Shown here: positions 1,858-62,736 of the stretch, in pieces
Layout: each line of letters begins with the position of its first letter
How positions within the stretch are numbered: the first letter of the stretch is position 1
From: Scolanthus callimorphus
Taxonomy: Eukaryota; Cnidaria; Anthozoa; Actiniaria; Edwardsiidae
Direction: 5' to 3'
DNA length: 64,000 nt
NCBI GenBank assembly: GCA_033964015.1
Contig: CM066914.1
Location: 31,541,492 to 31,605,491, forward strand
Position numbers and translations under genes: made by a program
Notes under the pieces: model-generated
Database searches by the model: none
The model's input: only the letters and a program-made list of their open reading frames with translations
What the model was told of the DNA's origin: nothing

Positions 1858-1971
1858 TGTCTTTAATTGTAATTAGAATAAACTGATCATGATGACGTCA
1901 TAAACAATCAACTGTAATTAGGATTCTTCAGCAATAACAATAAATATGGATGAACCAGGCTAACATCTACA
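1858..1971 (+). repeat. Left LTR of the BEL/Pao element (114 bp)
   Basis: It starts TGTCTTTAATTG and ends in CTACA. It holds a TGACGTCA octamer (1893-1900) and an AATAAA-like polyadenylation signal near 1940. BEL/Pao LTRs are usually a few hundred bases, so this is very short. Confidence 0.9.
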
Positions 1972-1975
1972 AAAC

Positions 1976-1993
1976 TGGTGCCGAAACCCGCTG
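1976..1993 (+). promoter_or_regulatory. Primer-binding site of the BEL/Pao element
   Basis: TGGTGCCGAAACCCGCTG begins four bases after the ACA end of the LTR. TGG pairs with the CCA end of a tRNA, as expected for minus-strand priming. The tRNA species was not identified. Confidence 0.7.
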
Positions 1994-1997
1994 CAAA

Positions 1998-2800
1998 ATG
2001 TCGAAAGAAGAAATTGCTAAACTAAGATCTTTAAGGGGAGCATATAAAGGGCATTGTACGCAGGATGTGAAACGCGCGGAAAGAATGATCACAGAAGATG
2101 CCGACGAATCGGAGTTAACTTCATTGCTCGAGCGTCTAACGAGACGGATCGAAGAAATCGACGTGATGGACAACAAGATAACAATGACTCTTGAGGGAAC
2201 AGACATCGAACGTGAAGCCGAAGCAGCTCTGTCCTTCCAAGATAACGTGTCCGATTGGATACACAAACTAAAGATGTTCATCGAAACGAAGCGAGCGGTA
2301 AGATCGATCCAAACTAGCAATTTAGCAAACTCCCAGCAGTCCCAGCAGCCTAGTCACGATTCAATGAATATTCACCTTCCAAAAATTAATATTAAGACCT
2401 ATGGCGGGAGTCCATTAGAATTCCAAGCATTCTGGGACCATTATAACGCAATGATTCATAGTAATGAAAGATTGAACAGCATACAAAAGTTTAATTATTT
2501 ACATGGTTTACTAGAAGGAGACGCCGCGCGCGCAATCGCCGGGTTTCCCTTGACAACGGAAAACTACAACAACGCGATCGAACTGTTGAAAGAACGTTTG
2601 GGAAGAAACAGCTTATAATTAATGCTTATATGGAATCGTTGACAAAATTGCGCGCGCCAGCCTTAGAAATCCAACAACTCAGAGAATTTTATGATAAATG
2701 CGAAACTAGCATACGCGGCTTAGAGGCGCTTGGAGTACAAACTGATTCATATGGTAGTTTATTAATACCCACATTGCTAAAAAGATACCGGAAAGCCTTT
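1998..2800 (+). pseudogene. gag: BEL/Pao gag, N-terminal part (DUF1759-like), frameshifted
   Basis: The likely start is ATG 1998 (MSKEEIAKLRSLRG), just after the primer-binding site; an upstream in-frame ATG at 1950 lies inside the LTR. A helical N-terminal region is followed by the motif around LPKINIKTYGGSPLEFQAFW typical of BEL/Pao gag, whose product packs the RNA in cytoplasmic particles. The frame closes at 2618, but gag-like sequence continues in another frame (AYMESLTKLRAPALEIQQL) to about 2790, where a second shift leads into the zinc-knuckle region. These indels would stop translation of the polyprotein. Confidence 0.8.
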
Positions 2801-2805
2801 GTTGC

Positions 2806-4029
2806 ATGATGCTTCGCACAAATCCTTTAGCTGACAGCCATCTGGACGATCTACGGAAAGCGCTAAGGCAAGAAATCGAGACTAGAGAAAAGGGTCATCA
2901 CATCTCAGCAGGACCTTCTACGGCGGAAGACGCCTTTATTCCTACAGCTGACGCCTTACTCGCCGGAGCAAAACCAGGAAGATCAGGACAAAGCCCAAAC
3001 AGATCAAGAGGCCCAAGACCATGCGTTTATTGTGACGAGAACCATCGCCCAGATAAATGCGCAAAAGTAAAGACATCAGAGGAACGACAAGCAATCTTGA
3101 TAAAAAAACGAAGATGCTTTAACTGCCTCGGGCAGAATCACATGAAAGCCAAATGTTTTTCCAAAGGCCGCTGCATGAAATGTAAAGGCAAACATCACAC
3201 ATCAATTTGTGAAGAAACTGAGAAAGCGCAAACAGACTCCAAGCAACCATCGGAGAAGAAGTCCCCAGAAAAAGACTCCAAAGACGCCGCACACATGGGA
3301 GCAGCAGTTGTAAACCAAACACATGCGCCACTGGTATTGATGCCGTCCGCATTAGTGAAGCTGAAGGGAGAACTGCGGAGCTGTACCGCACGCATCCTTT
3401 TTGACTCAGGAGCACATCGATCCTTTATTACCAAAGAACTAAAGGATAAATTGCAACTGAGATCCTTGCATACTGAGTTATTGAACATAACAACGTTTGG
3501 TTCACGTGACGCACACAGAAAGTCACTAGAAGTAGTCCAGTTAAGCCTTCAGGCAAAACAGGAGGTTATCAAGATATTCGCTCTGGTAACCCCAATCATT
3601 TGTCCTCCCTTGTTATCGAAAGGACAGGGAAAAGCAATACCTCCCGAACTAGCGGAGCTGAAATTTGCTGATCCATGTAGCACAAGGGATCATGATCTAA
3701 AAGTCGACATCTTGATTGGAAACGACCACTACGGTCAACTTGTAACTGGCAACATGAAAAAGTCAAACGACGAAACAGTTATTGCAACAGAAAGCAAATT
3801 CGGGTGGCTGCTATCAGGCCCAGTCCCGCATCAGGGAAACGCCCTCTGTCAAACAATCGAGATTCGCTCGTCAGAGGACACACTTAACGAAACCCTCACG
3901 AAGTTTTGGGAGGTGAACGAATTCCCCAGAACACACCTGAAAACAAAGTCCTGGAATCATTTGAGGACACGATTATATTCCACAAAACAACTGGCAAATA
4001 TAATGTACAGTTACCATGGAACGACTTAA
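2806..4029 (+). pseudogene. BEL/Pao zinc knuckles and aspartic protease, start of pol
   Basis: Three cysteine-rich knuckles lie in a row near 3026-3215 (CVYC...H...C, CFNC...H...C, CMKC...H...C), the nucleic-acid binding part of nucleocapsid. They are followed by a retroviral-type aspartic protease (DUF1758-like) with the active-site motif LFDSGAHRSFI near 3400, and by the linker into RT (ESKFGWLLSGP). The last ~35 residues before the stop at 4029 are out of frame; the true pol frame continues from about 3935. The ATG at 2806 is only the first in this open frame and not a natural start, as gag and pol should be one polyprotein. Confidence 0.85.
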
Positions 4030-5432
4030 AACAAGATTTACCATCTAATTTTGAGCTAAGCAGAAAACGCCTGAATAGCCTGCGTTATAGTTTAAAAGCA
4101 AACCAAGAACTGATGGTAAAATATAATCAGCAACTCCAAGATCAAATAACACTAGGTTTCATAGAGAAAGTAGAGGACATTCATACCAACGCAGGAACAT
4201 TACATTATATTCCACATTTCCCAGTCTTAAAATCTGAAGGAAGCACACAAACACGAATCGTATATGACGCTTCCGCCAAGAAATCGGAAAAGTCGTTGTG
4301 TCTCAACGACTGTCTCTATACTGGCCCGAATTTGATGAGAGACCTGTCAGCCATTTTACTTAAGTTTAGAGCACACACATACGCCTTTACGGCCGATATC
4401 GAGAAGGCATTCCTGCAAATAGAACTTAACGAGAAGGACAGGGACGCAACACGATTCCTTTGGCTAAAGGATATAAACAAACCAACTGACGATTCAAATC
4501 TTGAAGTCTTTAGATTCTGCAGAGTACTATTTGGAGCTGCTCCATCGCCATTCCTCTTACATGCAACAATCCAACACCATATGAAACAGAAAAACACATG
4601 GATATCTGAAGACATACAGACATGTATGTACATGGACAACCTAGTCACTGGAACAGATGAGGAAGCAAAAGTAATGGCGTATTACGACAAATCACGAAGC
4701 TACTTCAAAGAGGCTGGAATGAACCTCAGGCAATGGACATCCAACTCCGCCCAGCTGAACAAGAAGATATTGGAAGACAAAACAGGGACAGGTGGAAGTG
4801 TTAAAGTACTTGGACTTATATGGAATCCCGACAACGATACTCTCTCACTTTCAATTGAGAAACTCATCAAGGAAGTAGAAAATGTGCAGATCATCACCAA
4901 ACGATCAGTATTAAGTATCGCATCAAAATTATTTGATCCTTTGGGTTTTACAGAGCCCATTACAGTGAGAGCAAAAACCATGTTCCAGGAACTTTGGAAG
5001 TCAAAAATCGAATGGGATAAAAGTCTACTTGAAGACCAAAAGACCAAATGGCTGATGTGGTTCAGAGAACTTTGTCACTTGAAAACACTCTCGATTCAAA
5101 GAGCCTATTTTACTAAAAGTGGGAAGAAAACACAGCTTCACATATTCTGCGACAGCAGCAAACTCGCCTATGGAGCAGTGGCGTACTTGAGAACTAAGTC
5201 AGGAGATGAAATCAAAACAGCATTTGTAATAGCAAAAACTAAAGTCGCACCTTTCAAAACGCAAACACTTCCTCGACTAGAATTATCAGCTGCACTCCTA
5301 GGAGCCAACATTCTGAAATACTTGCAAAAAATACCTGGTTTCCTAGACAACGACTGCACGATCATACTGTGGAGCGATTCACAAATAGTCTTGTCATGGT
5401 TAACAACCAAGAAAACACCTTCAACAGCATGA
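3906..5432 (+). pseudogene. pol: BEL/Pao reverse transcriptase and RNase H-like region, truncated by MITE
   Basis: Pao-type RT with RIVYDASAK, LNDCLYTGPNL, ADIEKAFLQIELNE and the palm motif MYMDNLVTG near 4624. The second palm residue is Asn instead of the common Asp. A Peptidase_A17/RNase H-like portion follows (HIFCDSSKLAYGAVAYL near 5137, LPRLELSAALLGAN near 5270, LWSDSQIVLSWL near 5370). The frame ends at a TGA made by the MITE that begins at 5431. Removing the MITE and one AT copy continues the frame into CVLNRVIKIKEI at 6889, so the stop is due to that insertion. Confidence 0.9.
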
Positions 5433-6886
5433 GGAGCTTTGGGCAAGTAAAAAATGCGCCCCCACCACTTGAGAAAGGTGTTAATCCCTGCCAAGTCACT
5501 CTCTCGTTTTTATTGACATTTGCTGGTAAACATCAATTAGCATGCTCAAAGGTCACAGCGGAAACTACGTACTTTGCACGCTCGAACAAAGTAGTTCGAA
5601 CAAGCATAGGAAGAGCTCTGATCCATTCTTGTGCAAGGATGGCCAGCTTTCTTCGATTTACTAAGCAGCGAATTGATCATGAGTCCTGCTGTGTCACAAG
5701 CAGTGGTAGAACTAATCCCCGGGAGATCAGTATAGAGAAGTATTAATGTTGTATACTAAACACAGCTAGCTTTGTTATGTTTATATTACCGCGCTATTTT
5801 GAGGCTAAACTTCGGAAAATACCAGGCACGGATGACACGTTTACCTGGTTATCGAAGGGAAAGGTTTTTTGTCTCTTTCAATTTGTAAAGGGCAGGAATT
5901 ATTTTCTCCACTACTATTAATGTGGCTTTTGCAAACGCTGATTTATTGAACGAAACATGCAACGATCAATTTCGCGCGCAAAATGTTCCAGAGTTGATTT
6001 TACTTCGCAGTATAATAATACTCAAATGAAGAAACCTTCATCATTCTCGGAATTTAGGATTTGACTTTGCTAGAGCATTTGAACAGAGCTAGATGCAGAA
6101 CTCATTCTCCACGTAATCTTTAAGTGAAGTATAATGTCTAGAGCGTGCTCTGAAATAGCATTGCTGTTCCGGATCGTTGTGGCGGTTAAGATAAATACTT
6201 TCTTATATTTTTCGATTTTCATAGCTTTCATACGGGTTTCATGCACAATTTGTACAAGAAAATGAATTGATTTCCGCACTGAAGCTACAGGTCAGTTTGT
6301 ACAATGCACTAAGAACGACGAACGATTTGTTACCAAACGAGCACCATACAAAAATGTAATTCCATTTTGCCGGGTTTATTTGGTTCTTTTTATTAGGGGA
6401 AAAGACCTCGCGTTGTCAAGATGTTGCATCTTTCGGCAACGGACTGTCAAGATGATTCATCTTTGGGCAGTTGTCTGGAACCTTATATAATAACATGAGA
6501 GATATGCCATTTCCAGCGGACATATAAGAGACATACAGTATTGGGTATGGGCCAAGTTGTTGTCAAGATGTTGCATCTTTAGGTAACAAAACTGCAAAGA
6601 TGTCCCATCTTTTGGCAGTTGCCCCGAACCTAAAAACTACGATTGTCACTTTGGCGCCCGGGCTTTGCCATTTCTTTTCCGTCATCTGCGTAAAAGTACG
6701 CGTAAAATAAAATAGTAATTTGTTTATGCATGGAACTGCGAAGCATGGACGTCTCAGCGTTTGCAATTGAGCTTAATCCTGACTGACACTAATACCACTT
6801 ATAGTAATCAACGCTTCCTTTGAGGGAATGCCGACTACTGATTCAATCCGTAGCTTCATTATTTTTTTAGCGCGCCTAAGCTCCTC
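5431..6886 (+). mobile_element. 1.46-kb non-autonomous DNA transposon inside BEL pol, AT target duplication
   Basis: The termini are inverted repeats starting GAGGAGCTT(T/A)GG, with similarity extending about 26 bp to an A-run on both sides. The dinucleotide AT is duplicated (5429-5430 and 6887-6888), and removing the element plus one AT joins the pol frame exactly. A 2-bp AT duplication is known for the ISL2EU/IS4EU group, so a non-autonomous member of that group is a reasonable guess. No transposase is seen. Small open frames inside have no recognisable domain. Confidence 0.8.
6418..6611. repeat. Four AAGATG-N3-CATCTT palindromes
   Basis: Copies at 6418-6432, 6449-6463, 6565-6579 and 6597-6611, each able to form a 6-bp stem with a 3-base loop. 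They come as two pairs inside the MITE, and GTCAAGATG and GGCAGTTG flanks are also shared. Confidence 0.75.
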
Positions 6887-6888
6887 AT

Positions 6889-7454
6889 GTGTCCTCAATC
6901 GAGTCATCAAAATAAAGGAAATAACATCAAATCATCCATGGAAATTCTGTCCAACTTCAGAAAATCCTGCAGACTTATTGACACGTGGTCTAACTGCACA
7001 ACAGCTTAAAGAAAACGACCGGTTTTGGTTTAACGGACCAAAATGGCTAAGCAAAGAAAAAGAAGAATGGCCAAACAAAGAACAAGGCGAAGGGGTACAA
7101 GAACCTGAAATAGTCAACAATTACGTGAAGGCTGAAGACACGCCAAACATTCTGAACAGCATAATCCCAACAAGGTACAGTTCATGGGTCAAACTTCTCC
7201 GTGTCACCGCAAATGTGTTCAAGTTCGCAAACAGATGGAGAAAAGGGAGCTGCAAAGATTACCTAACAGCAAACAGGAGGGAACTCTCGCGTCCTATTGA
7301 AAAACTCTATCCTTTGGAGGTGCAAGCATTTGTGGATCAACGGAAAATTAGATCGACAACGGAAGATCACGGAAAAGAAAGCGAGAAATCAGAACGTCCA
7401 CAAAGAGCAGCAGCCAAAATTGCAGCTCAAAAAATCAAAGAACTCTCTCACTGA
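6889..7454 (+). pseudogene. pol: BEL/Pao pol continuation and C-terminal tail; integrase core deleted
   Basis: The frame resumes after the MITE with VLNRVIKIKEI, then WKFCPTSENPADLLTRG, the conserved BEL segment between RNase H and integrase, and the following helical region (WVKLLRVTANVFKFANRW). Where the zinc-binding and DDE core of integrase should follow (several hundred residues), the sequence passes within about 20 codons to a basic tail (RPQRAAAKIAAQKIK) that resembles the polyprotein end. The core was therefore lost near 7330-7380. The element could only move with an integrase supplied in trans. Confidence 0.8.
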
Positions 7455-7570
7455 CTTTCATACTAATGATCAGAAACATTCTGACCAGAACTTTCTACTA
7501 CTCTCGTAATATTAATGGAAAATCGTGTAAATCATCCAAACTATACTTTCAACTTCGCCGCCCGGGAGGG

Positions 7571-7684
7571 TGTCTTTAATTGTAATTAGAATAAACTGAT
7601 CATGATGACGTCATAAACAATCAACTGTAATTAGGATTCTTCAGTAATAACAATAAATATGGATGAACCAGGCTAACATCTACA
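7571..7684 (+). repeat. Right LTR of the BEL/Pao element (114 bp)
   Basis: Same 114 bases as the left LTR except one C/T difference (GCAATAA versus GTAATAA). It is preceded directly by a purine-rich tract. Contains TGACGTCA at 7606. Confidence 0.9.
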
Positions 7685-7842
7685 AAAATTATCAAAAAGA
7701 AATGGAATCTTCCAACATTTTCTAACGTACTTCTTTCTGTGCCCATCGCTCTGAGTCCATTGGTGGTCACTACACTATGGGCCTTGCTACACCATATTGA
7801 GACAGCGGATTTCCATCAAGGGGCTCTATACTGTGTTATTTA

Positions 7843-14264: not shown

Positions 14265-14614
14265 GGAAATGCGTGAAAACTCGAACGGGCTTACCTTATA
14301 TCCACATTTGCTCCCTAGAGAGTAACACATTTTACTAGCCAATCAGAACTGTCTGGGTATAAGCTTTGCCCAAACTTGTCCTTTTGTTTGAGCTTTAAAC
14401 AATCGAACAAGTTCAAGCAAGGACAAGACGACAGGCTTGCGCATGCTCTCATTAGCAGACAAACAAGCCTGGGCGTGCTGATATAGTCACAGACTGTCAT
14501 GGTGTGCGGGTGTGTCTAAGGAAGCTCCGCGGGCAGTTAATCAAATTTCGTATTTGTCTTATTCATATTCGTTTATAAAGCCAGCAGCCGTTAATAATTA
14601 TATAAATCTAAAGT
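14265..14614. other. Spacer and likely 5' UTR of the LINE
   Basis: No gene. A TTTATAAAG sequence lies at about 14572, some 40 bp before the LINE ORF1 start. The true 5' end of the LINE cannot be placed. Confidence 0.4.
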
Positions 14615-15373
14615 ATGGGGACTCGATCGAAGTCTAAATCTGTAGTAGAGGACAGCAACACTGAGTTCGTGACGATGACAACCGTTCGCGAGATGCTAAA
14701 AGTACAAGAATCAACGATGAAGAGCATGTTTGACTCAGTTGTTAAGAACCTGACTTCACGAGTCGACCAAATGGTTATGAAAGTCCAGGAAATTAAAACC
14801 AGCCTGGAATATACTCAGAAGGACGTAGAGGACTTGAAACCTCTGTCAGAGGACATAGAAGAAGTCAACAAAGAAATCGAAACTATCGTGACCGAGCTTG
14901 GATCTCAATCAGGGAAAATGGAGTACCTGGAAAATCAATCTCGGCGTAATAATATACGAGTAAATGGTATTCCAGAGGTTCATGCGGGGGAAAAGGAGAC
15001 GTGGGAAGATGTGGAGGTCAAAGTGAAGGAGGCGATCAAGGAAAAACTCAATATCGACGTGGATATTGAGAGAGCGCATCGGGTGGAACGAAGGAAGCCA
15101 AAGAAAGTAGTCGGAGCAGCCGGACGAGAGTCTTCAAAAAAACAACCAAGAACCATCGTGTGCAGGCTTAAAAGCTGGAAGCAGCGGGAGCAGGTGGTTA
15201 GAAAGGCTCGTAAAGATAAACCCGTCGGCCTGCGAGTTACGGAAGATCTGTCTTTAGCAACACTGCAGAAGCGAGAGCCAAAAGTCGCCGCGTTAAAGGC
15301 CGCCAAAGAAGCCGGTAAAATAGCGTATTTCGTGCTAGACAAGCTCGTTATACACGATAAGCCAGTCAAGTAA
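14615..15373 (+). CDS. LINE ORF1 protein, L1-ORF1-like
   Basis: 252 codons, intact. Residues ~25-110 are a long heptad-type coiled coil (trimerisation in related proteins). They are followed by MEYLENQSRRNNIRVNGIPE, the start of an RRM-like domain, and by ERAHRVERRKPKK and RTIVCRLKSWKQREQVV, then a C-terminal domain. Proteins of this kind bind the element RNA in cytoplasmic particles and act as nucleic-acid chaperones. The ATG 14615 follows an AT-rich leader and is the first in frame. ORF2 starts about 180 bp further on. Confidence 0.85.
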   Translation: MGTRSKSKSVVEDSNTEFVTMTTVREMLKVQESTMKSMFDSVVKNLTSRVDQMVMKVQEIKTSLEYTQKDVEDLKPLSEDIEEVNKEIETIVTELGSQSGKMEYLENQSRRNNIRVNGIPEVHAGEKETWEDVEVKVKEAIKEKLNIDVDIERAHRVERRKPKKVVGAAGRESSKKQPRTIVCRLKSWKQREQVVRKARKDKPVGLRVTEDLSLATLQKREPKVAALKAAKEAGKIAYFVLDKLVIHDKPVK

Positions 15374-15550
15374 TTTCTTAACTTACTTGCCTTTCCATAA
15401 TTTGGATGATGAAAATTTTCGGTTAACTCTTTATGAACATGAAAATGGTTCAATTCATTATGATCCTGATAGACTCGCTAGTTTAAAATTTAATCCTTTG
15501 TTATGTGAATCTCAGAAAAATTTAGCCTTTGTGATGATCGTGATCCTGAT

Positions 15551-18450
15551 TTGAATTTTTTTACACAATCGTCTGATTGTGAATATTACGTAGAAGAAAG
15601 TTTTAACAGCATGCTAACCGAAAAACATCATTCAAATTTGCCGGCAAGTAACAATGTAAATCAATTGTCTCTGCTTCATTTAAACATCCGAAGCATATCA
15701 AACAAGCTGGATAATTTTTCACAATTCTTGGGAAATCTTTCCCATGAGTTTTCTATCATCGGAATGACTGAAACTTGGCTCGACAACTCAAATCACCTAT
15801 CAGATATTTCGGGATACAATTTTATTCATAATCCTAGGTTAAACACGTCTGGCGGGGGCGTTGGTCTTTATTTGTCTGATTATTTTGAGTTTAAGCGACG
15901 TACAGATTTGTGTTTCTTAAATGACTGCGCTGAGTCATTGTTTATCGAGATTACTAGAGCAAAAGAGAAAAATGTTATAATAGGTGTTGTGTATAGACCA
16001 CCCGACAAAAATTTTAATGAATTCATAAAAGATTTAGATCGTTTAGTCAGTCAAATTTCGAAAGAAAACAAACTCGTTTATTTGATGGGTGACTGGAATG
16101 CAAATTTGCTCTCCCACTCTCGTCATCAAGCCACGGGGGAATTTTTAGAGTTGTTATACTCTAAAATGTTTTCTCCTTTAATAACGCGACCTACTAGAAT
16201 AACCGCTAATACGGCAACATTAATTGATAACATTTTTACAAACGATCCTGTTAGCCCTTCAATTAGTGGTCTTTTTCTTGTTGACATTTCTGATCACCTT
16301 CCTATTTTTGCTATTATCTCAGATTCCAATTATAGTTTTGAAAGGGAAAACTTTTTTACTTTCCGTGACAAAAGCTCAGAAAACTTGAATCGTTTCAAGC
16401 AAGAGCTTGAAGAAGTCAACTGGCATGAACTACCAGAATATGGTGACCCTAACTCTGCTTACAGAATTTTTTTGAATAAATATCGTGACATTTATAATAA
16501 AAGCTTTCCATTGAAGAAAGTTAAAATTAAAAGGCATATTTTACGCAAACCCTGGTTTTCTAAAGGTTTATGCAAATCAGTAAGGACAAAAATACTTTGT
16601 ACAAGCGTTTCCTCAATTATCCTAACCCTCAAAACGAGGCAGTCTACAAGAGTTACAAAAACAAATTAAATCATTCCATTAGAATAGCTAAGAAATTATA
16701 TTACGAAAAGAAAATAGAGGAGTCAAAGTCTAATGCTAAGAACACATGGAAAATTCTGAACGAGGTAATCAATAAAAAAAGAAATAAATTACCATCCGTC
16801 TTTAAGGTGGATGGTAAAGAGATGACTGATACAAAACAAATTGCAGATGGTTTTTGTAAGTTTTTTTCTAATATTGGTGTAAGTCTTGCGAATAAAATTC
16901 CTGCAAGCCGCCTCGCACATAATGCTTTTCTTTCGGGAAATTTTGTTAATTCCTTTTTTCTATGTTCTGCATCTGAGGAAGAAATATCTGAGATTTGTAA
17001 CAGCTTTCGCAGTAAAACTGCGGCAGGGTTTGATAATGTTTCTTTAGATTTAGTTAAAGAGTGTTTAAGTATATTACGTAGTCCGTTGACACATATTATT
17101 AATCTATCTATTACATCAGGCATTGTTCCTGATGAATTCAAAATTGCAAGAGTTATACCTTTATTTAAATCTGGTGATAATTCTCTTTTTTCGAACTATA
17201 GACCTGTATCTGTCCTTCCTGCTTTTTCTAAAATTCTCGAACGAGTGATTTACAATCGCCTTTTAGATTACTTAAACAAATACAATATTTATCTGACAAT
17301 CAGTTTGGGTTTCGTAAAAACCATTCAACAGAATATGCCCTCTCTCTTTTATATGATAAGATTTCCTCTGCTATAGATAATAAGGAGCTAACTGTAGGTA
17401 TTTTCATTGACTTATCTAAAGCCTTTGATACGGTTAATCACGATATCTTATTGGATAAATTATTTCATTACGGGATTAGGGGGGTGGCTCATGACTGGTT
17501 TGCTAGTTATTTAAGCAATAGACAACAATTTGTTCAATACAATGATACATTTTCATTTTCATCACATCATGCCACTAAATGTGGAGTTCCAAAAGGGTCA
17601 ATATTAGGTCCATTGCTCTTTCTGATTTACATCAATGATATGTGTAATGTTTCAAAGGTTTTAGATTTCATACTTTTTGCTGATGATACTAATATTTTTT
17701 TGTCTCATAAAAATTTGTCTGTTCTTGAGAGAACATTGAATGAAGAACTTTCAAAACTAACTGATTGGTGTTTCGCCAACAAATTATCTATCAATTTTTC
17801 TAAATCTAAATATATGGTATTCAAGCCTAAGCAAAAAAGGCAAACAGTTGATATTAGATTATTTTTAAGTAATTGTGCCATTGAACGGGTAAAGGAGGTG
17901 GTTTCTTAGGGGTTATTCTTGATGAGAATCTTTCATGGGCTCAGCATATTGCAAATGTTGCTAGAAAAAGTTCTAAATCCATAGGAATAATATATAAATC
18001 AAGTTTTTGCCTTCCACTATCTTCATTATGTACACTTTATTATAGTCTAGTTTATCCCTATCTCATATATTGCATATCGGTGTGGGCATCAACTTATCCA
18101 ACTAACTTAAACCGTATCTTTATTCTTCAAAAAAGGCTAGTCAGAATAATTTCAAAAAGGAATTGCAAATCCTTAAGTTTTATGATATTTATCTATTTCA
18201 TATTGGCAAATTTATGTTTCTTTATAAGAAACGTCTTCTCCCTAGAGCTTTTAAAGATATGTTTTCACTGTCAAACGAAATTCATTCCTATAACACTAGG
18301 AATGCCGGTGCTTTTCACATTTTCCATATTAGAAAGTTTGCTATTCGGTTTCAAGGTCCTATTTTCTTTAATTCACTTAAGAAAGAAATTCAAAACTCAA
18401 ATTCTATTTCTCTTTTTAAATCAAGACTGAAAACATTTCTTCTTAGCTAA
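15551..18450 (+). pseudogene. LINE ORF2: APE endonuclease and reverse transcriptase, frameshifted
   Basis: Endonuclease (15551-16400): LHLNIRSI, MTETWLDN, GVVYRPPD, LMGDWNANLL, ATLIDNIFTND and SDHLPIF, the usual order of active-site motifs. The frame shifts at about 16600; the next part (to 17376) carries the thumb-proximal linker and RT start (FRSKTAAGFDNVSLDLVK, SNYRPVSVLPAFSKILERV). It shifts again near 17300, then SKAFDTVNHDIL, GVPKGSILGPLLFLIYINDM and the catalytic FADDTNIF (17670). After a third shift near 17900 come the C-terminal IHSYNTRNAG and FFNSLKKEI. Closed frames make this copy inactive unless some indels are assembly errors. Confidence 0.85.
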
Positions 18451-20668: not shown

Positions 20669-21662
20669 ATGCTTTTGGAGTTTGGAAAAAACGGAAAATC
20701 ATTGAGACGTGGATGGAATTCGATCTGCATGAAAAAGGAGGAGTGTGACGCCTCGGTCAAAAACTTAGCGAACGTTGCTTTCTTCTTTTCAGCAGTAGCG
20801 TCTTTTGAAAGGAAGGCGAAAACGAAGAAAAAAGGAGGTGAAGGCGATGAGGGCGACGAAGAGAACGACGATGCGATAAACCAGAGTCAAGGGCCGGCTG
20901 GACAAAATACGTCTATCAACATAGCGGTAGACAAGGAAAGATTCCCAGCCGTGACTTATTTCATTGGCTTCGAATCCGCAAATTGCGCCCCAGTAAGCCT
21001 GGTGCCAAGGTGCTAAAAGCCACTAAGCAGGGAGAACTGACGGCCAATCTCTGCACAGTCCTAAAAGATCACAGTTCAAGTTATATGATGAGCATTGTCG
21101 ACCACTGCTATGCATACTGTGTCAGGGATGTCCTGGAAGAATTTGACGAAGACATTACAGACCAACTCGAGTCTCAGTCCTCGTATACCGTCGTTAGCTT
21201 CTGCGTTACAAGCACCAACGCGTGGAAACGCTTGCGTAATGGTATTGAAGAGCTACAGAAAATGGGGTTAGATCTGATTTATGTGACTTATTTCATTGGC
21301 TTCGAATCCGCAAATTGCGCCCCAGTAAGCCTGGTGCCAAGGTGCTAAAAGCCACTAAGCAGGGAGAACTGACGGCCAATCTCTGCACAGTCCTAAAAGA
21401 TCACAGTTCAAGTTATATGATGAGCATTGTCGACCACTGCTATGCATACTGTGTCAGGGATGTCCTGGAAGAATTTGACGAAGACATTACAGACCAACTC
21501 GAGTCTCAGTCCTCGTATACCGTCGTTAGCTTCTGCGTTACAAGCACCAACGCGTGGAAACGCTTGCGTAATGGTATTGAAGAGCTACAGAAAATGGGGT
21601 TAGATCTGAAGAAAAAGAACATTCCTCAAGTCGATGCACCCAAAGAATCATCCCCAGAGTAG
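20669..21662 (+). pseudogene. Unrecognised host-type gene, 5' part, tandemly duplicated and split by a Polinton
   Basis: ATG 20669 opens a frame with a basic/acidic low-complexity stretch (KTKKKGGEGDEGDEENDD). In another frame 20957-21282 reads RIRKLRPSKPGAKVLKATKQGELTANL..., and this block is repeated at 21289-21662 where it runs on to KNIPQVDAPKESSPE. The Polinton starts at 21658 within the codons for SSPE, and the frame continues beyond it at 27355. No domain is recognised. A helical, mixed-charge fold is likely. The duplication and the insertion mean that the present copy cannot make the original protein. Confidence 0.55.
20951..21609 (+). repeat. Perfect 327-bp tandem duplication
   Basis: 20951-21277 and 21283-21609 are identical at every base I compared, separated by five bases (TTTAT). 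Period 332. Confidence 0.95.
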
Positions 21663-22155
21663 TATACAAAGTAAGAGTTCTGGCGCGGGTGGATCAGGGT
21701 GGATCTGTGGATCCACCATGAACGTTGCGTGACGAGCGAAAAAATGACTTCTCAAGAGTCACGCAAGTAAAAATGACGTCAGAAGTGAAAACAATAGGTT
21801 GCCCAGACTTGCCCACTCCTCAGATGGACTTGCCCAGAATTCAGAGATTGGGATGATAATTATTTAAGAGGGCTCAGGTGTGAATATCTTTGAATAGTTT
21901 AGCTTATTTAAGGTTTTATGGGATAATTATTAGTTAGAAATTATAGTATGCGTTTTTAATACCAATAGCTAGATAAGAAAAACAAATATGAATTATATAT
22001 AGCATAGTTGTAGTTAATAATATCATATCTTATTATAGGGATATATGCGCATATGCTCCAAGATCACAAAACAACCATAGCTGGATAATATATTTATTAG
22101 TAATACAAATAGGTGTAGGCTACAAATAGGAATACAACACTAATATAGATTTTAT
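21658..22155 (+). repeat. Left Polinton TIR (498 bp)
   Basis: Near-perfect inverted copy of 26851-27348. Contains TGACGTCA at 21774 and a nested palindrome GTGGATC...GATCCAC near 21690-21720. Confidence 0.93.
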
Positions 22156-22703
22156 CTATTTCGTATCTATTTCTGCTGTTCACTAGCGTTTTCGATTCTT
22201 TCACACTATTTTGTAAAAGGTTTTATCCAGCAACACCATACTATACTGTCTTAAACTTGTCTTCGGCTTGATCTGGATACTAGCCTGATGCGATGTTTAA
22301 GCTTTTCCGTCTTGATTGAGATATTTGAAAACGTTTTATTGCTTACAGATCTGACGGCGAAGTTAAACGAACAAGATATTTAGCCCCGCATCCTGGGATG
22401 GGACAATCACGGCAGACGCGTTTGTAAACCATGTTTACTCCTCGAAGACTTGATTGAAATGAGTTATATCTACCGAATTTCGCTTTATATAGACAGCCAA
22501 CAAGGCCTAAACGAGGCCAAACAAGCCAGAAAAGGGCCAAAAAAGCCTAATCCAGGCTAAACGTGCGGAACAGGCGAATCGGGACAAAACTGCTGAGTCA
22601 TGTTCACCTTGCCTCTGCATTAGACATGTTTAGGCCTGCCTGGTGACGTCAAAATAGATGTTTAGACTCCACCAATCAAAATTCTACCCTTTGTCTCTTT
22701 GCG

Positions 22704-22745
22704 TATAAATAGAGGTCGATCGCCTTAATCCACTCATTCAGTCTA
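22704..22745 (+). promoter_or_regulatory. TATA-box promoter of the Polinton gene
   Basis: TATAAATA at 22704 stands about 30 bp before an initiator-like TCATTC/TCAGTC at 22736-22742, close to ATG 22745. Transcription from here would give a leader of only a few bases, so ATG 22796 (MTFACDTCG), directly before the fingers, may also be used. Confidence 0.55.
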
Positions 22746-23050
22746 TGGCCTTCGAAGGGTGCAGATCAAGCCAGGAAGCTCCTCCAGTAGCAAAGATGAC
22801 TTTCGCCTGCGATACCTGTGGCCAGCAGTTTACGCAAGAGACGAACCTTCTTCGCCACAAGAAAACTCTTCACGGCAACCAGTCTTTTATATGTGAGCGC
22901 TGTCGCCAATCATTCACCCGAAAAGATGCTCTCAAGCGACATATGAAGAAACATTCACTAGATAAAGAACATAGGTGTCAGCACTGCAGTCGCAAGTTTT
23001 ACCGCAAGGATAAGTTGTGTGAGCATGAGGAAATTTTGTTGGTATTTTAA
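22745..23050 (+). pseudogene. C2H2 zinc-finger segment of the Polinton polymerase
   Basis: Three C2H2 fingers: CDTCGQQF...H...H (from 22808), CERCRQSF...H...H and CQHCSRKFYRKDKLCEH. The frame stops at 23050. Similar charged linker sequence continues in another frame (23019-23210, KQDLKRKSENEDSEQPKKK) and then in the polymerase frame (FKYKPRIREKHD near 23217), so the fingers and polymerase were probably one protein, now divided by two single-base indels near 23030 and 23205. The fingers may bind the TIRs. Confidence 0.7.
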
Positions 23051-23254
23051 GCAAGATCTCAAAAGAAAAAGTGAAAACGAAGACAGCGAACAGCCCAAGA
23101 AAAAACTAGCAAAAATGAATCAAGTCGGAAATGGAGTAGAACAAAATGATGACAAAGCAACCTCTGAGGATTCTTGTGATTTCACATCGGCCATGAAAGA
23201 GTCTCTAAGACTTTCAAGTACAAGCCACGCATCCGAGAAAAACATGATCTCCGT

Positions 23255-26200
23255 GTGTTTCTTGCCGGCAAGAAGACCTTTCTTCTTCATCGTCTCGATC
23301 AAGAATTAGCCGCCAAGAAAGGTCTCAAGTGGTGTGTGAGCGTGCAAGTGAACTTCATCAAACCAAAAGCCGACGGCTTAGATGTGTTCTCCGAACCTTA
23401 TTTCCGCAGTTTGTGCATGACCACTCTCAATACTCATGATATAGAGCAACAACTAAATGACGTGAACCAAAAGATTTTAGCCGCGTTTGCTACCTACCAG
23501 AGAGAAGGGAGTGGTTGGTCACTCTCTGAAATTCTACATCTGAATTTGAATATCGCCCTTTACAAGCCCCTGAAAGGCTCCAGCTATCTCCCGCTACCGA
23601 AGAAGTTAAAGGATAAGAAAGCTATTATAAATATCCAGAATCAAGACAACAAATGTTTTATGTGGAGTATTCTGGCGGCATTACATCCAACACCTCGTGA
23701 TTCTGAGAGGATTCATCACTATCGGCCCTATATTGATGAACTAGACTTTGATGGTATCGAGTTCCCCGTAGCTATCGACAAGCTCCCAAAGTTTGAGAAG
23801 CAGAACCAGATCGCTGTGAATGTGTTTGGTTTTGAAGAGGGCGCCCTATTCCCAGTTTACATCGGTAAGGAAAGATTTCCCGTACATATCAACCTACTAC
23901 TATACTCTATGGGAGAGAAACGCCATTACTGCCTTATTAGAAATTTGAACCGACTGCTTTCAAGCCAGACTCGAAATCATAACCAAATGTACCACTGCTC
24001 TCATTGTCTTCATGGCTTTGTGCGCCAGGATCTCCTCGATGATCACCAGCCTTTATGCAGTCAACACGGCGCTCAGAGGATCGAGCTGCCTAACGAGGAT
24101 AATATGGTCCTGCATTACAAAGATTTTCACAAGCAGTTGCGCGCCCCCTTTATCATTTATGCCGATTTTGAGAGTTTAACAACCAAGATACAGTCCATAT
24201 CTCCTGACCCGAACAAGTCGTCCACAGAGAAGTTTCAGCACCACCAGGCTTGTGGCTTTTCTTACGTAGTGGTATCCGAGCGGGATGATTACTGTCAACC
24301 CCCTGTAGTCCACCGCGGAGAAGACACCGTTGAGAAGTTTCTTGAATATTTACAACTGGAAGAAGAGCGCATAAAGGTTCTACTTGAAGACATCGCCCCC
24401 ATGGATTTCAACTCTGAAGAAGAACAGCAATTTCAGGATGCCACCATATGTCATATTTGCCGGGAGGAACTGGGAGCTGACAGAGTGAGAGACCACTGTC
24501 ACGTGACTGGCAAATTTCGAGGAGCTGCTCACAATGCTTGTAATCTAAACTTCCAGTTCACTGGCCGCATTCCTGTCGTTCTCCATAATCTGCGCGGCTA
24601 CGACTCGCATCTCATTATGCAAGGGCTCGGCAAGATCAAGAACAAACCCATCAACTGTATTCCCAATAATATCGAAAAGTACATTTCTTTCTCGCTGGGG
24701 AAATTGGATTTCATCGATTCTTTGCAATTTATGAACGCGTCATTGGACAAACTCGTATCTAATCTAGCCAAAGAGGGCGATGCCAAGTTTGAAATTCTCA
24801 AGAAATACACTGCGGCAGACAAAGTCCCGCTATTACTAAGGAAAGGTGTCTACCCCTACGACTATATGGATGATGTGTGCAAGTTTGAAGAACCACAACT
24901 CCCTCCGAAAGAGGCCTTCTACAGCAAACTCACAGACCAACATATCAGTGACGAGGACTACGAGCATGCACAAACAGTGTTTACCACATTTGAGCTTCAG
25001 AATCTTGGAGACTACCACGACCTGTACCTTCTCTCCGACGTCCTGCTCTTGGCTGATGTGTTTGAAAACTTCCGAAGTCTCTGTCTCAACTACTATCAGT
25101 TGGACCCCGCCCATTTCTTCACTTCTCCTTCTCTTGCTTGGGCTTCCTGTCTCAAGATGACCGAGGTGGAACTCGACCTCTTGACTGACCCCGACATGTA
25201 TACGTTTATGGAAAAGGGAATTCGAGGCGGTATTTCAATGATCAGTAACCGCTACAGCAAAGCGAACAACCCGTATGTGCCTAACTATGATGCTGCACTG
25301 GAGACGAACTACATATCATACCTGGACGCTAATAATCTGTACGGTTGGGCTATGAGCCAACCTCTGCCAACCAATGACTTTGCGTGGTTGTCGGAGCAGG
25401 AAGTGCGTGATTTTGATGTAATGGAGGTGTCGGATGATAGCGAAGAGGGGTTCATACTCGAAGTGGATCTCGAATATCCTGAAGAGCTACATGTTCGGCA
25501 TTCCGACTACCCCTTGGCGCCAGAGAAAATGAAGGTGACCGCTGACATGCTCTCTCCCTACTGCCAACAACTCAATGAAGAGCTTCACCTTGGTGGTGCG
25601 CCCGTCCCGAAACTCGTACCCAGTCTCCAGAACAAAACGCAGTATATCCTCCATTACCGGAATTTGAAGCTGTACCTCAGCCTCGGTATGAGACTAACCA
25701 AGATTCACCGTATACTAGGATTTTCACAGAGCACCTGGCTTAAACCCTACATCAATTTCAATACTCAGAAGAGAAAGCAGGCAACAAATGACTTTGAGAA
25801 GGATTTCTTCAAGCTGATGAACAATGCCGTCTTTGGAAAGACCATGGAGAATCTTCGCCTTAGAGTCAACGTCAAGCTTATCACAAACCAAGAGAAACTC
25901 ACTAAGCTGAGCGCATCCCCCGCGTTCGACTCCTTCCGGATCTTCTCTGAAGACCTTGCCGCCATCAACATGAGAAAAACCAAGTTGTACCTGAATCGCC
26001 CTATTTATGTAGGGTTTTCTATTCTCGATTTGTCCAAAGTTTTGATGTATGACTTCCATTACAACTACATGGTTCCTAAATACGAGTCCCGCTGCAAACT
26101 CCTTTTCACAGACACAGATTCTCTCTGCTATGACGTCAAGACAGAAGACCTATACCGTGACTTCCTACAGGACCTGGATCTTTTCGACATGTCAGAGTAC

Positions 26201-26599
26201 CCCACCGATCACTTCCTGTATAGCGCGCGAAACAAGAAAGTCCTTGGAAAGATGAAGGATGAAACCCATGGAATCCCGATTGAAGAGTTTATTGGTCTCC
26301 GCCCTAAGATGTACTCCATCCTTTACACCGAAAACAGCAAGCCTGTAGAAAAGAAAACTGCCAAAGGCATCTCCAAGAATGTCACTAAGAGGGTGATCCG
26401 TCATCACGATTATAAGACATGTCTCTTTGACAAGAAAGTGCAAATGGCTCGGATGAATCAGATCCGAAGTGAGAATCACCAGATTTACTCTGTTACCATC
26501 AACAAAACTAGTCTCTCTCCCTACGATGACAAACGCTACATTCTTCATAATGGATGTGATACCCTAGCCTATGGACATTTTAGGATCAAAAACTCTTGA
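23255..26599 (+). CDS. polB: Protein-primed family B DNA polymerase (Polinton PolB)
   Basis: An intact frame of 1,114 codons; residue numbers count from 23255, which is GTG and not the true start. An N-terminal conserved region (about 125-265) has QDNKCFMWS and HYCLIRNLN, then a Cys/His cluster. Exonuclease: Exo I YADFES (D304/E306), Exo II RGYDSH (D450), Exo III YLLSD (Y591/D595). A zinc cluster like recombination endonuclease VII sits between Exo I and II (C399, C402, C415, C429). Polymerase: motif A YLDANNLYG (D691), motif B KLMNNAVFGK (K853), motif C TDTDS (D953/D955). All expected catalytic residues are there. It would copy linear DNA from a terminal protein. AATAAA lies at 26685. Confidence 0.93.
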   Translation: MFLAGKKTFLLHRLDQELAAKKGLKWCVSVQVNFIKPKADGLDVFSEPYFRSLCMTTLNTHDIEQQLNDVNQKILAAFATYQREGSGWSLSEILHLNLNIALYKPLKGSSYLPLPKKLKDKKAIINIQNQDNKCFMWSILAALHPTPRDSERIHHYRPYIDELDFDGIEFPVAIDKLPKFEKQNQIAVNVFGFEEGALFPVYIGKERFPVHINLLLYSMGEKRHYCLIRNLNRLLSSQTRNHNQMYHCSHCLHGFVRQDLLDDHQPLCSQHGAQRIELPNEDNMVLHYKDFHKQLRAPFIIYADFESLTTKIQSISPDPNKSSTEKFQHHQACGFSYVVVSERDDYCQPPVVHRGEDTVEKFLEYLQLEEERIKVLLEDIAPMDFNSEEEQQFQDATICHICREELGADRVRDHCHVTGKFRGAAHNACNLNFQFTGRIPVVLHNLRGYDSHLIMQGLGKIKNKPINCIPNNIEKYISFSLGKLDFIDSLQFMNASLDKLVSNLAKEGDAKFEILKKYTAADKVPLLLRKGVYPYDYMDDVCKFEEPQLPPKEAFYSKLTDQHISDEDYEHAQTVFTTFELQNLGDYHDLYLLSDVLLLADVFENFRSLCLNYYQLDPAHFFTSPSLAWASCLKMTEVELDLLTDPDMYTFMEKGIRGGISMISNRYSKANNPYVPNYDAALETNYISYLDANNLYGWAMSQPLPTNDFAWLSEQEVRDFDVMEVSDDSEEGFILEVDLEYPEELHVRHSDYPLAPEKMKVTADMLSPYCQQLNEELHLGGAPVPKLVPSLQNKTQYILHYRNLKLYLSLGMRLTKIHRILGFSQSTWLKPYINFNTQKRKQATNDFEKDFFKLMNNAVFGKTMENLRLRVNVKLITNQEKLTKLSASPAFDSFRIFSEDLAAINMRKTKLYLNRPIYVGFSILDLSKVLMYDFHYNYMVPKYESRCKLLFTDTDSLCYDVKTEDLYRDFLQDLDLFDMSEYPTDHFLYSARNKKVLGKMKDETHGIPIEEFIGLRPKMYSILYTENSKPVEKKTAKGISKNVTKRVIRHHDYKTCLFDKKVQMARMNQIRSENHQIYSVTINKTSLSPYDDKRYILHNGCDTLAYGHFRIKNS

Positions 26600-26850
26600 G
26601 AACACTAATATCATGTGTTTATATATGAAGCACATGTGTATATTAGCCTATAACCTGTATAATTGCTATTATTCCATAATTAATAATAAAATATATGAGA
26701 AGAAAGATCGGACTGATAGAAATATGAGAGTTTAGATCCTACTCTTGTATCGAAAAATTTATAGTTTTGCATTTCTATATCCACTCTAGCTTATCATACA
26801 GGATTTCCATGTAGTTTATATGTATTACAGTCTAGAACATACTCGTGTAT

Positions 26851-27348
26851 ATAAAATCTATATTAGTGTTGTATTCCTATTTGTAGCCTACACCTTTTTG
26901 TATTACTAATAAATATATTATCCATCTATGGTTGTTTTGTGATCTTGGAGCATATGCGCATATATCCCTATAATAAGATATGATATTATTAACTACAACT
27001 ATGCTATATATAATTCATATTTGTTTTTCTTATCTAGCTATTGGTATTAAAAAAGCATACTATAATTTCTAACTAATAATTATCCCATAAAACCTTAAAT
27101 AAGCTAAACTATTCAAAGATATTCACACCTGAGCCCTCTTAAATAATTATCATCCCAATCTCTGAATTCTGGGCAAGTCCATCTGAGGAGTGGGCAAGTC
27201 TGGGCAACCTATTGTTTTCACTTCTGACGTCATTTTTACTTGCGTGACTCTTGAGAAGTCATTTTTTCGCTCGTCACGCAACGTTCATGGTGGATCCACA
27301 GATCCACCCTGATCCACCCGCGCCAGAACTCTTACTTTGTATACTACT
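26851..27348 (-). repeat. Right Polinton TIR (498 bp)
   Basis: Inverted copy of the left TIR; visible differences include one base in each of the segments near 22073, 22110 and 21952. Contains TGACGTCA at 27225. Confidence 0.93.
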
Positions 27349-27354
27349 CCCCAG

Positions 27355-60534: not shown

Positions 60535-62736
60535 TTTATTATATCCATTTTGAAATCACTGTCAATCCCTGCAATCTGATTGGCTTACAACAGTGCGATT
60601 TATTCCCAAATCGCATCCTTTTGAGTCTAAATCGCATCTTTTTCTCAGCCAATCACAAATAAGCACCAAAACCAAACAACCAATCAGATTTGAGCATTAC
60701 ATTTCATTAGCTAATCAAATTGCAGGAAAATGTGCTAGGGAAGCCATTTGGGGAAAAAATTTTCAAGTTTTTGTTGCAAAACTTCCCAAACTTTCAAGGC
60801 AAAATGGATGAAATTAATTACTTACAGTTTGGTATTGATGATGATGACTTACTAGCAGCAGAGGCCTCATGTTCACTTGATTTTCCCGAGTTTTTGTTAC
60901 TTTTGAGGAAAATTTTGGCGATAATTCTACAGCAACATCTCACAATCCGAGCGTCCCGCGATCCAAAGCAAGTGAAATACCGACACCAATAACAGAGAAA
61001 TCCAATGATAACGATGTTTCCCGGTTCCCTGAAGTTACAAGCGATGCAATTGAAGAGCTGAAGACGGTTGCCATTAATAAAAACACTTCTAGATCCACGA
61101 AACAATGGATGAATGTGTTCAATGCTTGGTGTCAGTCCCGTCATCTTCAGAATGTAAACATCGAAACAATGGCGCCGCGAGAACTTGACAAGATCCTGAG
61201 CCAGTTCTATGCAGAGGTCAAGAAGAGAGATGGAGAGGACTACGAACCAGAGTCACTCAAAAAAATGCAGTCAGCCATTGAACGCTTTCTTAAGGATAAA
61301 AACTACCCCCTGAGCATCGTGCGGGCGAGAGAGTTCTTCAATTCGCAGCAAATCCTCCAGGCGAAGGCGATTTCCTTGCGTCAAGAAGGAAAGGGAAAGA
61401 GACCAAATAAAGCGCAACCATTATCCGAGAATGACGAGGTGGCACTCTGGGAGAAAGGCCAGTTGGGCGACTTCAATGGCCGAGTTTTGACAAATGTAAA
61501 CTTTAAGAACTTGACTGAGCAACTAGGGTTGCGAGGTCGCCAAGAGCATTACGATGCATATGTGGAGGATCTTGTGGTAAGACAACTAGAAGACGGCAGT
61601 GAAGCGGTTGAATTCCGAGAAGGGCCAACCAAAACCCGAAGTGGTGGGCTAACAATCAAGAGACGAACAACTCCCCAAGTAATGCACACCACAGATGGAG
61701 GAAAAACCGATCCTGTTCGCCTGTTCAAGCTCTGGCTATCGAAGCGTCCAGAAGGCATGAAGAGCAGCGGTCCCCTGTACTTGAGTGTCATAAATCGCCC
61801 GAAAACACCTGATGTCTGGTATACAAAAGTCAGAATGGGCCAGAATACAGTCGGAAATCTAATGAAAACCATGGCCTCCTGTCTCCAGACCGACAAAAAG
61901 ATCACAAACCATAGCATGAGGAAAACACTCGTCGCAAAGTTGAAGAAATCTGGCCAGCCGAGAAACGTTATCTGCGAGATAACTGGACATGCACGAGAGT
62001 CGTCGCTAGATGATTACGACGCCATGGATGAGACACAGAGGAAAGAGCTCTCTCATATCATCAGTGGATATCAGCCAGATCATAATGATCATCTGAAAGT
62101 AGCCCAAAATCAAGCGCCGAAAAAGTCAAATCCCGCTTCAAGTTCAAGTCAAATGTCTTCTCAGGCCGTTGAAGCTCAGCGTCAGCCACTACTTTCACTT
62201 CCAGTTTCGCAGTTCCAGCACCAAAGCAAGGTTATGCATCAGTCTCATCAGTCTATGGGCTATAATACAGCCTTTCCATCTACTGGATTCCAAGGTTTCC
62301 CAGGCTTTCATTCCCTGCAATATGGAATGGCAGCGTTCACCAGTGCAAGCAGCTCACCGAGTCCATCTCATTCACAGAATTACACGGGCTGCACTTTCAA
62401 TTTCTACGCTAGAGAAAGCGAGAATGCCGAAAAAAACCCAAAGAAACGCAGGGCATTCATCTTAGAGTCAGATGAGGAAGACTGAACTGTTCTAGTGACT
62501 GTTTTTGCGAAGAATTCCCCGTTCTATTGCGGGAATTGACTTTAAATGACGTTCGGGAAACTTGTTTCCCATTTTCATGCTCGAATGAGTTTTGATCACA
62601 TGATATATTTCGCATATTTTACCATATTTTAATCAGATGTACAAGCGTTTCCGGTTCCGCTTTAGAAAACCGGAATGAGAAATAAATCATATTTTGACAA
62701 CCCGAATTCGTGTGATTTCAAAATGGATATAATAAA
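60535..62736 (+). mobile_element. Crypton-type element enclosed by perfect 25-bp inverted repeats
   Basis: 60535-60559 (TTTATTATATCCATTTTGAA...) and 62712-62736 are exact reverse complements. Between them lies a single intact tyrosine recombinase gene with its own 3' AATAAA (62683). No target duplication was evident. Cryptons are normally described without TIRs, so the repeats may mark a different kind of element or a MITE pair around it. Confidence 0.55.
60804..62485 (+). CDS. Crypton-type tyrosine recombinase (KIAA1958/DUF3504-like)
   Basis: The main frame is intact from about 60900 to the stop at 62485; ATG 61109 is the first in it and gives 458 residues, but in-frame sequence upstream (SRSTKQWMNVFNAWCQSR) belongs to the N-terminal SAM-like domain. 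The real start is probably ATG 60804 (MDEINYLQFGIDDDD) in another frame, needing a one-base shift or short intron near 60890. Numbering from 61109: Arg box LGLRGRQEH (R142/R144), TNHSMRK (H268/R271), TGHARESSLDDYD (H294, nucleophile Y303, nine apart). Residues 330-458 are Ser/Gln-rich, ending in KKRRAFILESDEED, probably nuclear. It may be an active transposon enzyme or a domesticated gene. Confidence 0.85.

What the first reader, a model, noticed from the sequence alone, without database searches (positions are those of the whole stretch)
21658..27348. A 5.7-kb Polinton carrying only a zinc-finger/DNA polymerase B gene
Seen: 498-bp TIRs of equal length and about 99 percent identity, 6-bp CCCCAG duplication, and a PolB frame with all exonuclease and polymerase residues. 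Known: Polintons are 15-20 kb and need a retroviral-type integrase; bidnaviruses hold a Polinton-derived PolB on a ~6-kb linear molecule. Inferred: this could be a self-replicating, integrase-dependent satellite of Polintons, or a state between a transposon and a small linear virus. Its near-identical TIRs and complete PolB speak for recent activity.
Basis: partly seen in the sequence, partly recalled or inferred. Interest (0 to 1): 0.88.

Follow-up and report, generated by a model that had tools for sequence, protein, structure and literature searches.

The report
Mini-Polinton family carrying only replication genes
This window holds one shortened, partly broken copy of a family of short virus-like mobile DNA elements that carry their own DNA polymerase but, as far as seen, not the integrase and capsid genes of their large relatives, so they probably copy themselves and borrow the rest.

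Summary
The observation largely holds: 21658-27348 (5,691 bp) has 498-bp TIRs with 3 mismatches, a CCCCAG duplication and an open 1,139-aa PolB frame. Two corrections: the zinc-finger part is not in frame with PolB here, though it is in relatives; and the copy lacks about 1 kb of a canonical 6.6-6.9-kb element, including most of a small second zinc-finger gene. The host genome holds a family: 12 distinct insertions with perfect 6-bp duplications and AGTAGTATAC tips; seven paired PolB copies of 5.65-6.91 kb; none of 30 tip pairs is 12-25 kb. PolB differs between copies by dS 0.18-0.53 with dN/dS 0.08-0.17, so the lineage long needed a working polymerase. No integrase or capsid gene was found in the 26 family loci searched, some of them partial, while full-length Polintons with AGTAGTAT tips and integrase are abundant. 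Best reading: a reduced Polinton/adintovirus lineage that replicates itself and uses an integrase in trans. The trans step is inferred; none of five copies read in full is unbroken; the window copy is itself a deletion derivative.

The parts
21652..21657 (.). Target-site duplication CCCCAG, left copy
21658..22158 (+). Left TIR, tip AGTAGTATAC; 498 columns with 3 mismatches, match ends after column 501
   Evidence: in L028-L031 the TIRs align over 585-720 columns, so this arm is shortened
22158..22161 (.). Junction where 0.5-0.6 kb present in other copies is missing
22343..22546 (-). Remnant of the small C2H2 gene: first 24 residues kept (MVYKRVCRDCPIPGCGAKYLVRL), then a different end
22364..22365 (.). 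Junction where about 0.33-0.54 kb present in other copies, with the rest of the small gene, is missing
22709..23050 (+). C2H2 zinc-finger frame, 5' part of the ZF-PolB gene, frame 2
22962..23309 (+). Frame 0 that holds the linker between fingers and PolB (frame break on either side of it)
23180..26599 (+). Adintovirus/Polinton-type PolB, open frame of 1,139 aa, frame 2
26848..27348 (-). Right TIR
27349..27354 (.). Target-site duplication CCCCAG, right copy

Best explanation
A member of a reduced Polinton/adintovirus lineage ('mini-Polinton'). The canonical element is 6.6-6.9 kb: long TIRs with AGTAGT tips, a ZF-PolB gene and a small divergently placed C2H2 gene. Shown: the family, its 6-bp duplications, the gene content of the copies read, and purifying selection on PolB and on the finger half of the small gene. 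Inferred: a linear form is copied by its own protein-primed PolB, starting within the AGT-AGT repeat and jumping back to the tip; the small zinc-finger protein helps replication, perhaps by binding the ends; insertion is done by retroviral-type integrases of full-length Polintons/adintoviruses of the same genome, whose tips share AGTAGTAT. Helper capsids may carry it. The window copy inserted recently by its TIR identity, has lost about 1 kb, and its ZF-PolB gene has two frame breaks.
For: 12 distinct perfect 6-bp duplications. The same two-gene order in L028-L031, and in L037 interrupted by another element. Seven PolB-bearing pairs of 5,653-6,910 bp and no 12-25-kb pair among 30. dN/dS 0.08-0.17 at dS 0.18-0.53 over 53 of 55 pairs; the two left out are segmental duplicates. 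Small gene: dN/dS 0.16 over codons 1-58. No integrase, capsid or other Polinton gene in 26 family loci plus the window element, apart from a nested ATPase unit in L051. Integrase supply: 121 scored hits, 48 of them covering the query from end to end without a stop. A 16.2-kb Polinton in the same genome has tip AGTAGTATCT. (AGT)2 end-motifs, 6-bp duplications and jumping back are described for vertebrate Mavericks (PMC8097293, passages only).
Against: None of the five copies read in full (window, L028-L031) has an unbroken ZF-PolB gene. Trans integration is not shown. Three tip-bearing pairs (L054-L056) lack a 6-bp duplication. Other close PolB loci (C2:14308554, C7:6319263, C1:43895051) were not read, and L037-L039, L042-L044 are 10-kb cuts. 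A genome-wide search with the C16-type integrase did not complete. 18 of the 131 tips lie outside the two complete listings. The dN/dS script used only alignment columns with at least 60% local identity and no stops, which favours low ratios. Terminal protein and PolB structure were not tested.
Confidence: 0.62

Rival explanations
1. Recurrent defective genomes: each short copy arose by its own internal deletion of a full-length parent virus that is not in the assembly, like defective interfering genomes, and the constraint on PolB is the parent's.
For: Short variants do arise by different deletions: the window lacks about 1 kb by the small gene, L052 lacks the start of PolB. Palindromic ATPase units of this genome look like defective derivatives of 15.7-16.1-kb elements. 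Each insertion is a separate lineage, as expected of insertion from a diverse outside pool.
Against: L028-L031 share one two-gene order although their polymerases differ by dS 0.18-0.52, so the short form predates their split. No full-length element with these tips was seen among 30 pairs.
Confidence: 0.2
2. One segment of a divided, adintovirus-like virus: PolB on this element, other functions on other AGTAGTAT-tipped elements such as the ATPase units.
For: Short elements with AGTAGTATA tips and 6-bp duplications carry either PolB or a Pox_A32-like ATPase. The small zinc-finger protein resembles the N-terminus of that ATPase (36% over 61 aa, E 2e-4) and of the C16 ATPase (46% over 41 aa, E 3e-9).
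Against: The ATPase unit of L051 is a nested insertion with its own GTGGAT duplication. Its longer tip is shared with four pairs of 15.7-16.1 kb, one of which, half read, has integrase and capsid candidates, so the units look like derivatives of those. No capsid-only or integrase-only segment was found; none was specifically searched for.
Confidence: 0.08
3. A single ordinary deletion copy of a full-length Polinton, without meaning beyond the locus.
For: The window copy does lack about 1 kb relative to L028-L031, and its gene is broken.
Against: What it was shortened from is itself a 6.6-6.9-kb element with many related insertions.
Confidence: 0.05
4. Passive non-autonomous repeats in which PolB is mere cargo.
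For: Many tip pairs of 0.4-5.1 kb exist; those read (L032, L034, L054-L056) had no PolB match.
Against: dN/dS 0.08-0.17 between PolB copies.
Confidence: 0.03

Closest known systems
Polinton/Maverick elements
   Same: Protein-primed-type PolB by homology, TIRs, 6-bp duplications, (AGT)2 end-motif; TIR length within the 46-1,447 bp reported for intact vertebrate Mavericks (PMC8097293, passages)
   Different: 5.7-6.9 kb against 12.7-24.6 kb reported for those; no integrase, ATPase, protease or capsid gene found in the copies read
Adintoviruses
   Same: PolB 54% identical over the searched region (51% overall) to PolB of 'Parasteatoda house spider adintovirus'; [quoted passage not shown]
   Different: No hexon or integrase found
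Bidnaviruses
   Same: A Polinton-derived PolB and inverted repeats on linear segments of about 6-6.5 kb (PMC4061559, passages)
   Different: They also carry a parvovirus-type capsid protein and SF3 helicase (same passages); no such gene was noticed here and no dedicated search was made
Full element C16 of the same genome
   Same: PolB 58.5% identical; joins the window's group in the tree (99/98 support); has a zinc-finger ATPase next to PolB
   Different: Has integrase, capsid, protease and ATPase candidates
Short non-coding elements with the same tips
   Same: AGTAGTATAC tips; perfect 6-bp duplications in L032 and L034
   Different: No polymerase match

Membership tests
Polinton/Maverick | Family B DNA polymerase of Polinton type | tested here: met
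   Pfam DNA_pol_B_2 itself matches 2 of 30 aligned relatives and not the window frame
Polinton/Maverick | TIRs and 6-bp target-site duplication | tested here: met
   13 of 16 family pairs with both ends read, 12 of them distinct insertions
Polinton/Maverick | (AGT)2//(ACT)2 end-motif | tested here: met
   motif as described in PMC8097293
Polinton/Maverick | Retroviral-type (rve) integrase gene in the element | tested here: not met
   tblastn of three integrases against 26 family loci and the window element: no hit at E<=1e-3; some loci are partial
Polinton/Maverick | Capsid, protease and packaging ATPase genes | tested here: not met
   Same searches with capsid, ATPase, minor-capsid, protease and penton candidates; the only hit is the nested ATPase unit in L051
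Polinton/Maverick | Size of about 13-25 kb | tested here: not met
   Seven PolB pairs of 5,653-6,910 bp; 0 of 30 pairs of 12-25 kb
Adintoviridae | PolB related to adintovirus PolB | tested here: met
   P0101
Adintoviridae | Recognizable hexon and chromodomain integrase | tested here: not met
   No capsid or integrase hit
Bidnaviridae | Parvovirus-type capsid protein and SF3 helicase | not tested
   No bidnavirus sequence was at hand; the only large frame in the element is PolB
Protein-primed replicons | Terminal protein bound to the 5' ends | not testable with these tools
   Needs biochemistry; the AGT-AGT tip repeat is compatible

The most novel reading that the evidence does not exclude
A natural satellite virus of Polintons/adintoviruses, or one segment of a divided one: a two-gene linear replicon that makes its own DNA but borrows integrase and capsids from co-resident full-length elements, persists in a diverse, recombining extrachromosomal pool, and inserts only now and then.
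Probability: 0.25. Interest if true: 0.9.

Novelty: new variant of a known kind. Interest (0 to 1): 0.72.

Why it matters
Polintons are described as elements with their own polymerase, integrase and capsid genes. A lineage kept under selection with only replication genes would show that replication can be split from integration and packaging, would give a satellite-helper pair inside one animal genome, and would offer a living comparison for how a Polinton-type PolB with inverted repeats can exist on a unit of about 6 kb, as in bidnaviruses. It makes the use of Polinton integrases in trans directly testable.

Tried and rejected
A divided virus was considered when L051, with the same tips, turned out to carry an ATPase; its junctions showed a nested unit with its own GTGGAT duplication and a longer tip shared with 15.7-16.1-kb pairs, so I lowered it. 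A one-off deletion copy was rejected by the family, passive cargo by dN/dS. Viral contigs: nothing with the single sequence, two distant relatives with the alignment. Prokaryote genome contigs: 17 distant PolB loci; in the 11 that I inspected I saw no PolB enclosed by terminal inverted repeats (contigs may be cut). L054-L056 have no 6-bp duplication, their flanks being inverted copies of each other; not counted as insertions. L035 and C152 share the duplication AATAGT, L037 and L038 the same left flank, with dS 0.002 and 0.012: taken as duplicates. The last protein search (small zinc-finger protein) gave 486 relatives, 120 listed, none named beyond 'hypothetical protein', so no host distribution. 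A profile of 30 PolBs against solved structures matched zinc-finger proteins in the 60 of 106 rows shown; a polymerase match was not seen there. Literature: exact-phrase searches gave 0 papers; broader searches listed no PolB-only lineage in the titles and abstract beginnings that I saw. The library lacks most subscription papers, and the adintovirus paper was not held.
Full report
What is in the window. The inverted repeats that end at 21658 and 27348 are real: 498 columns with three mismatches, flanked by CCCCAG on both sides, with open frames of the host on either side. The PolB frame runs 23180-26599 without a stop. The closest proteins are P0001 (73%, source unnamed) and cnidarian ones such as Dendronephthya (P0003, 72%), then molluscan ones; a named adintovirus PolB (P0101) is 54% identical over the searched region (120 of 8000 scored hits are listed). 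Thirty aligned sequences, the window included, keep the residues that I take, from recall, for exonuclease and polymerase motifs; all thirty match Endonuclease_7 and two match DNA_pol_B_2 in Pfam. In a tree of 26 polymerases the window pairs with P0001 (100/99), next to the Dendronephthya group (99/96), then Oculina and the full element C16 of the same genome (99/98); the full-length Polinton C10 of this genome is further off. The tree is rooted at the midpoint only and has five long branches.

In P0004 and P0005 and in the genomic copies L028 and L030, zinc fingers, linker and PolB N-terminus share one frame; in L029 they share one frame interrupted by a stop. In the window they lie in frames 2, 0, 2, so this copy has two frame breaks. 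On the minus strand a 67-aa frame begins like a small C2H2 protein (six hits, five at E below 1e-3) and departs after 24 residues.

The family. The host assembly has 597 Mb in 302 contigs. A tip pattern gives 131 matches, its reversed control 7. Two tip subtypes, listed in full, give 44 and 69, controls 0. I paired neighbouring opposite tips on each contig by eye: 30 pairs. Seven are 5,653-6,910 bp, all with PolB matches inside; three are 9.4-10.3 kb, of which L051 holds a nested ATPase unit, and L050 and L035 hold what look by eye like retroelements; two exceed 25 kb; none is 12-25 kb; the rest are 0.4-5.1 kb. Of 16 pairs with both ends read, 13 have perfect 6-bp duplications: CCCCAG, TAGAAC, AACAAG, TACAAG, CACATA, ACGGCA, CTAGAT, GGCAGA, CACCTA, AATTGT, CTCAAA, and AATAGT in both L035 and C152, taken as one insertion duplicated. 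L054-L056 have none. Close PolB copies lie at 15 or more loci: 13, which scored 41 of 832 candidates, plus C152 and C1:25056327.

Canonical form. L028-L031 are 6,644-6,910 bp and share the order TIR, ZF-PolB, divergent small C2H2 gene, spacer, TIR. Against them the window lacks about 0.5-0.6 kb at 22158-22161 and 0.33-0.54 kb at 22364, which explains its size and its shorter TIR. L052 (5,844 bp) lacks the start of PolB instead. None of the five copies read in full (window, L028-L031) has an unbroken ZF-PolB gene.

Selection and age. Over 53 of 55 pairs of eleven sequences (two pairs of duplicates left out), dN/dS is 0.08-0.17 and dS 0.18-0.53. Columns of low local identity and stops were left out, which favours low ratios. 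Codons 1-58 of the small gene give 0.16, its tail 0.84, summed over seven copies. The two TIRs of one element agree at 99.2, 99.1, 99.8, 97.8 and 95.1% in the window and L028-L031, less in others (L052 92.1%, L050 79.2%; L032 97.1%, L034 90.0%). TIRs of different elements are 73-83% alike in 14 of 15 pairs, 96.7% in L028/L029. So for the window and L028-L029 nearly all divergence predates insertion. Identity is uneven: window against L031 is 97.5% in the first 400-bp bin and 81.7% in the next; against L030 it is 98.5% there and 77.9% in the TIR. I read this as exchange between co-replicating molecules; uneven constraint is not excluded.

What is missing and who could supply it. Proteins of C10 and L001 (integrase, capsid, ATPase, others) and of L059 (integrase, and capsid, ATPase, protease and penton candidates) have no hit at E<=1e-3 in 26 family loci and the window element, except the nested ATPase unit of L051; several loci are 10-kb cuts. 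C10 is 16.2 kb, with TIRs 99.5% alike over 375 columns and tip AGTAGTATCT; the flanks share 5 bp, not 6. Pfam supports its integrase (rve) and ATPase (Pox_A32); its capsid match is below the curated cut-off. The integrase search scored 121 hits of 1011 candidates; 48 cover the query from end to end without a stop. C16, the nearest full relative, has counterparts of L059's integrase, capsid, protease, penton and ATPase, the ATPase with a zinc finger beside PolB; L059's own capsid match in Pfam is weak, and its protease has none.

Mechanism. The AGT-AGT tip and 6-bp duplications are described for vertebrate Mavericks, where the repeat is taken to allow jumping back in protein-primed replication (PMC8097293, passages). 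I take the family as self-copying and its insertion as the work of helper integrases. Shown: lineage, tips, duplications, selection, gene content of what was read. Inferred: protein priming, the role of the small protein, trans insertion, possible packaging. The main rival is recurrent defective genomes of an unseen parent; the two-gene order shared by copies that differ by dS 0.18-0.52 speaks against it. Novelty: a reduced variant of a known kind. I found no description of it in a limited library.

Noticed in passing
L058 (C14:22128816-22137418) and the unit nested in L051: Near-perfect palindromes (8.6 kb, 99.4%; arms of 4.15 kb, 99.2%) carrying a Pox_A32-like ATPase in inverted pairs, with AGTAGTATAG tips and 6-bp duplications GCAGTT and GTGGAT; at least 93 ATPase hits in the genome. 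They look like snap-back derivatives of 15.7-16.1-kb elements with the same tips.
   Followed up: partly
C15:12941359, 12946419, 12951479: Three equal hits to the small zinc-finger protein, exactly 5,060 bp apart, as if a 5-kb unit were repeated in tandem.
   Followed up: no
window 20951-21582: Perfect tandem duplication with 332-bp spacing in the open frame just left of the insertion.
   Followed up: no
window 1858-7687: Pao-type retrotransposon: Peptidase_A17 and RVT_1 between direct repeats 99% alike at 1858-1974 and 7571-7687.
   Followed up: partly
window 60881-62485: 534-aa frame with DUF3504 and Phage_integrase matches, Crypton-like by recall.
   Followed up: partly
window 14612-18430: Non-LTR retrotransposon-like frames; RVT_1 at 17232-17906.
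   Followed up: partly
L003-L019: Polinton-type PolB on 17 contigs filed under prokaryote MAGs, some with rve-like integrase: probably eukaryotic or viral contamination of those bins; L003 carries an AGTAGTATAG tip 30 bases from its end.
   Followed up: partly
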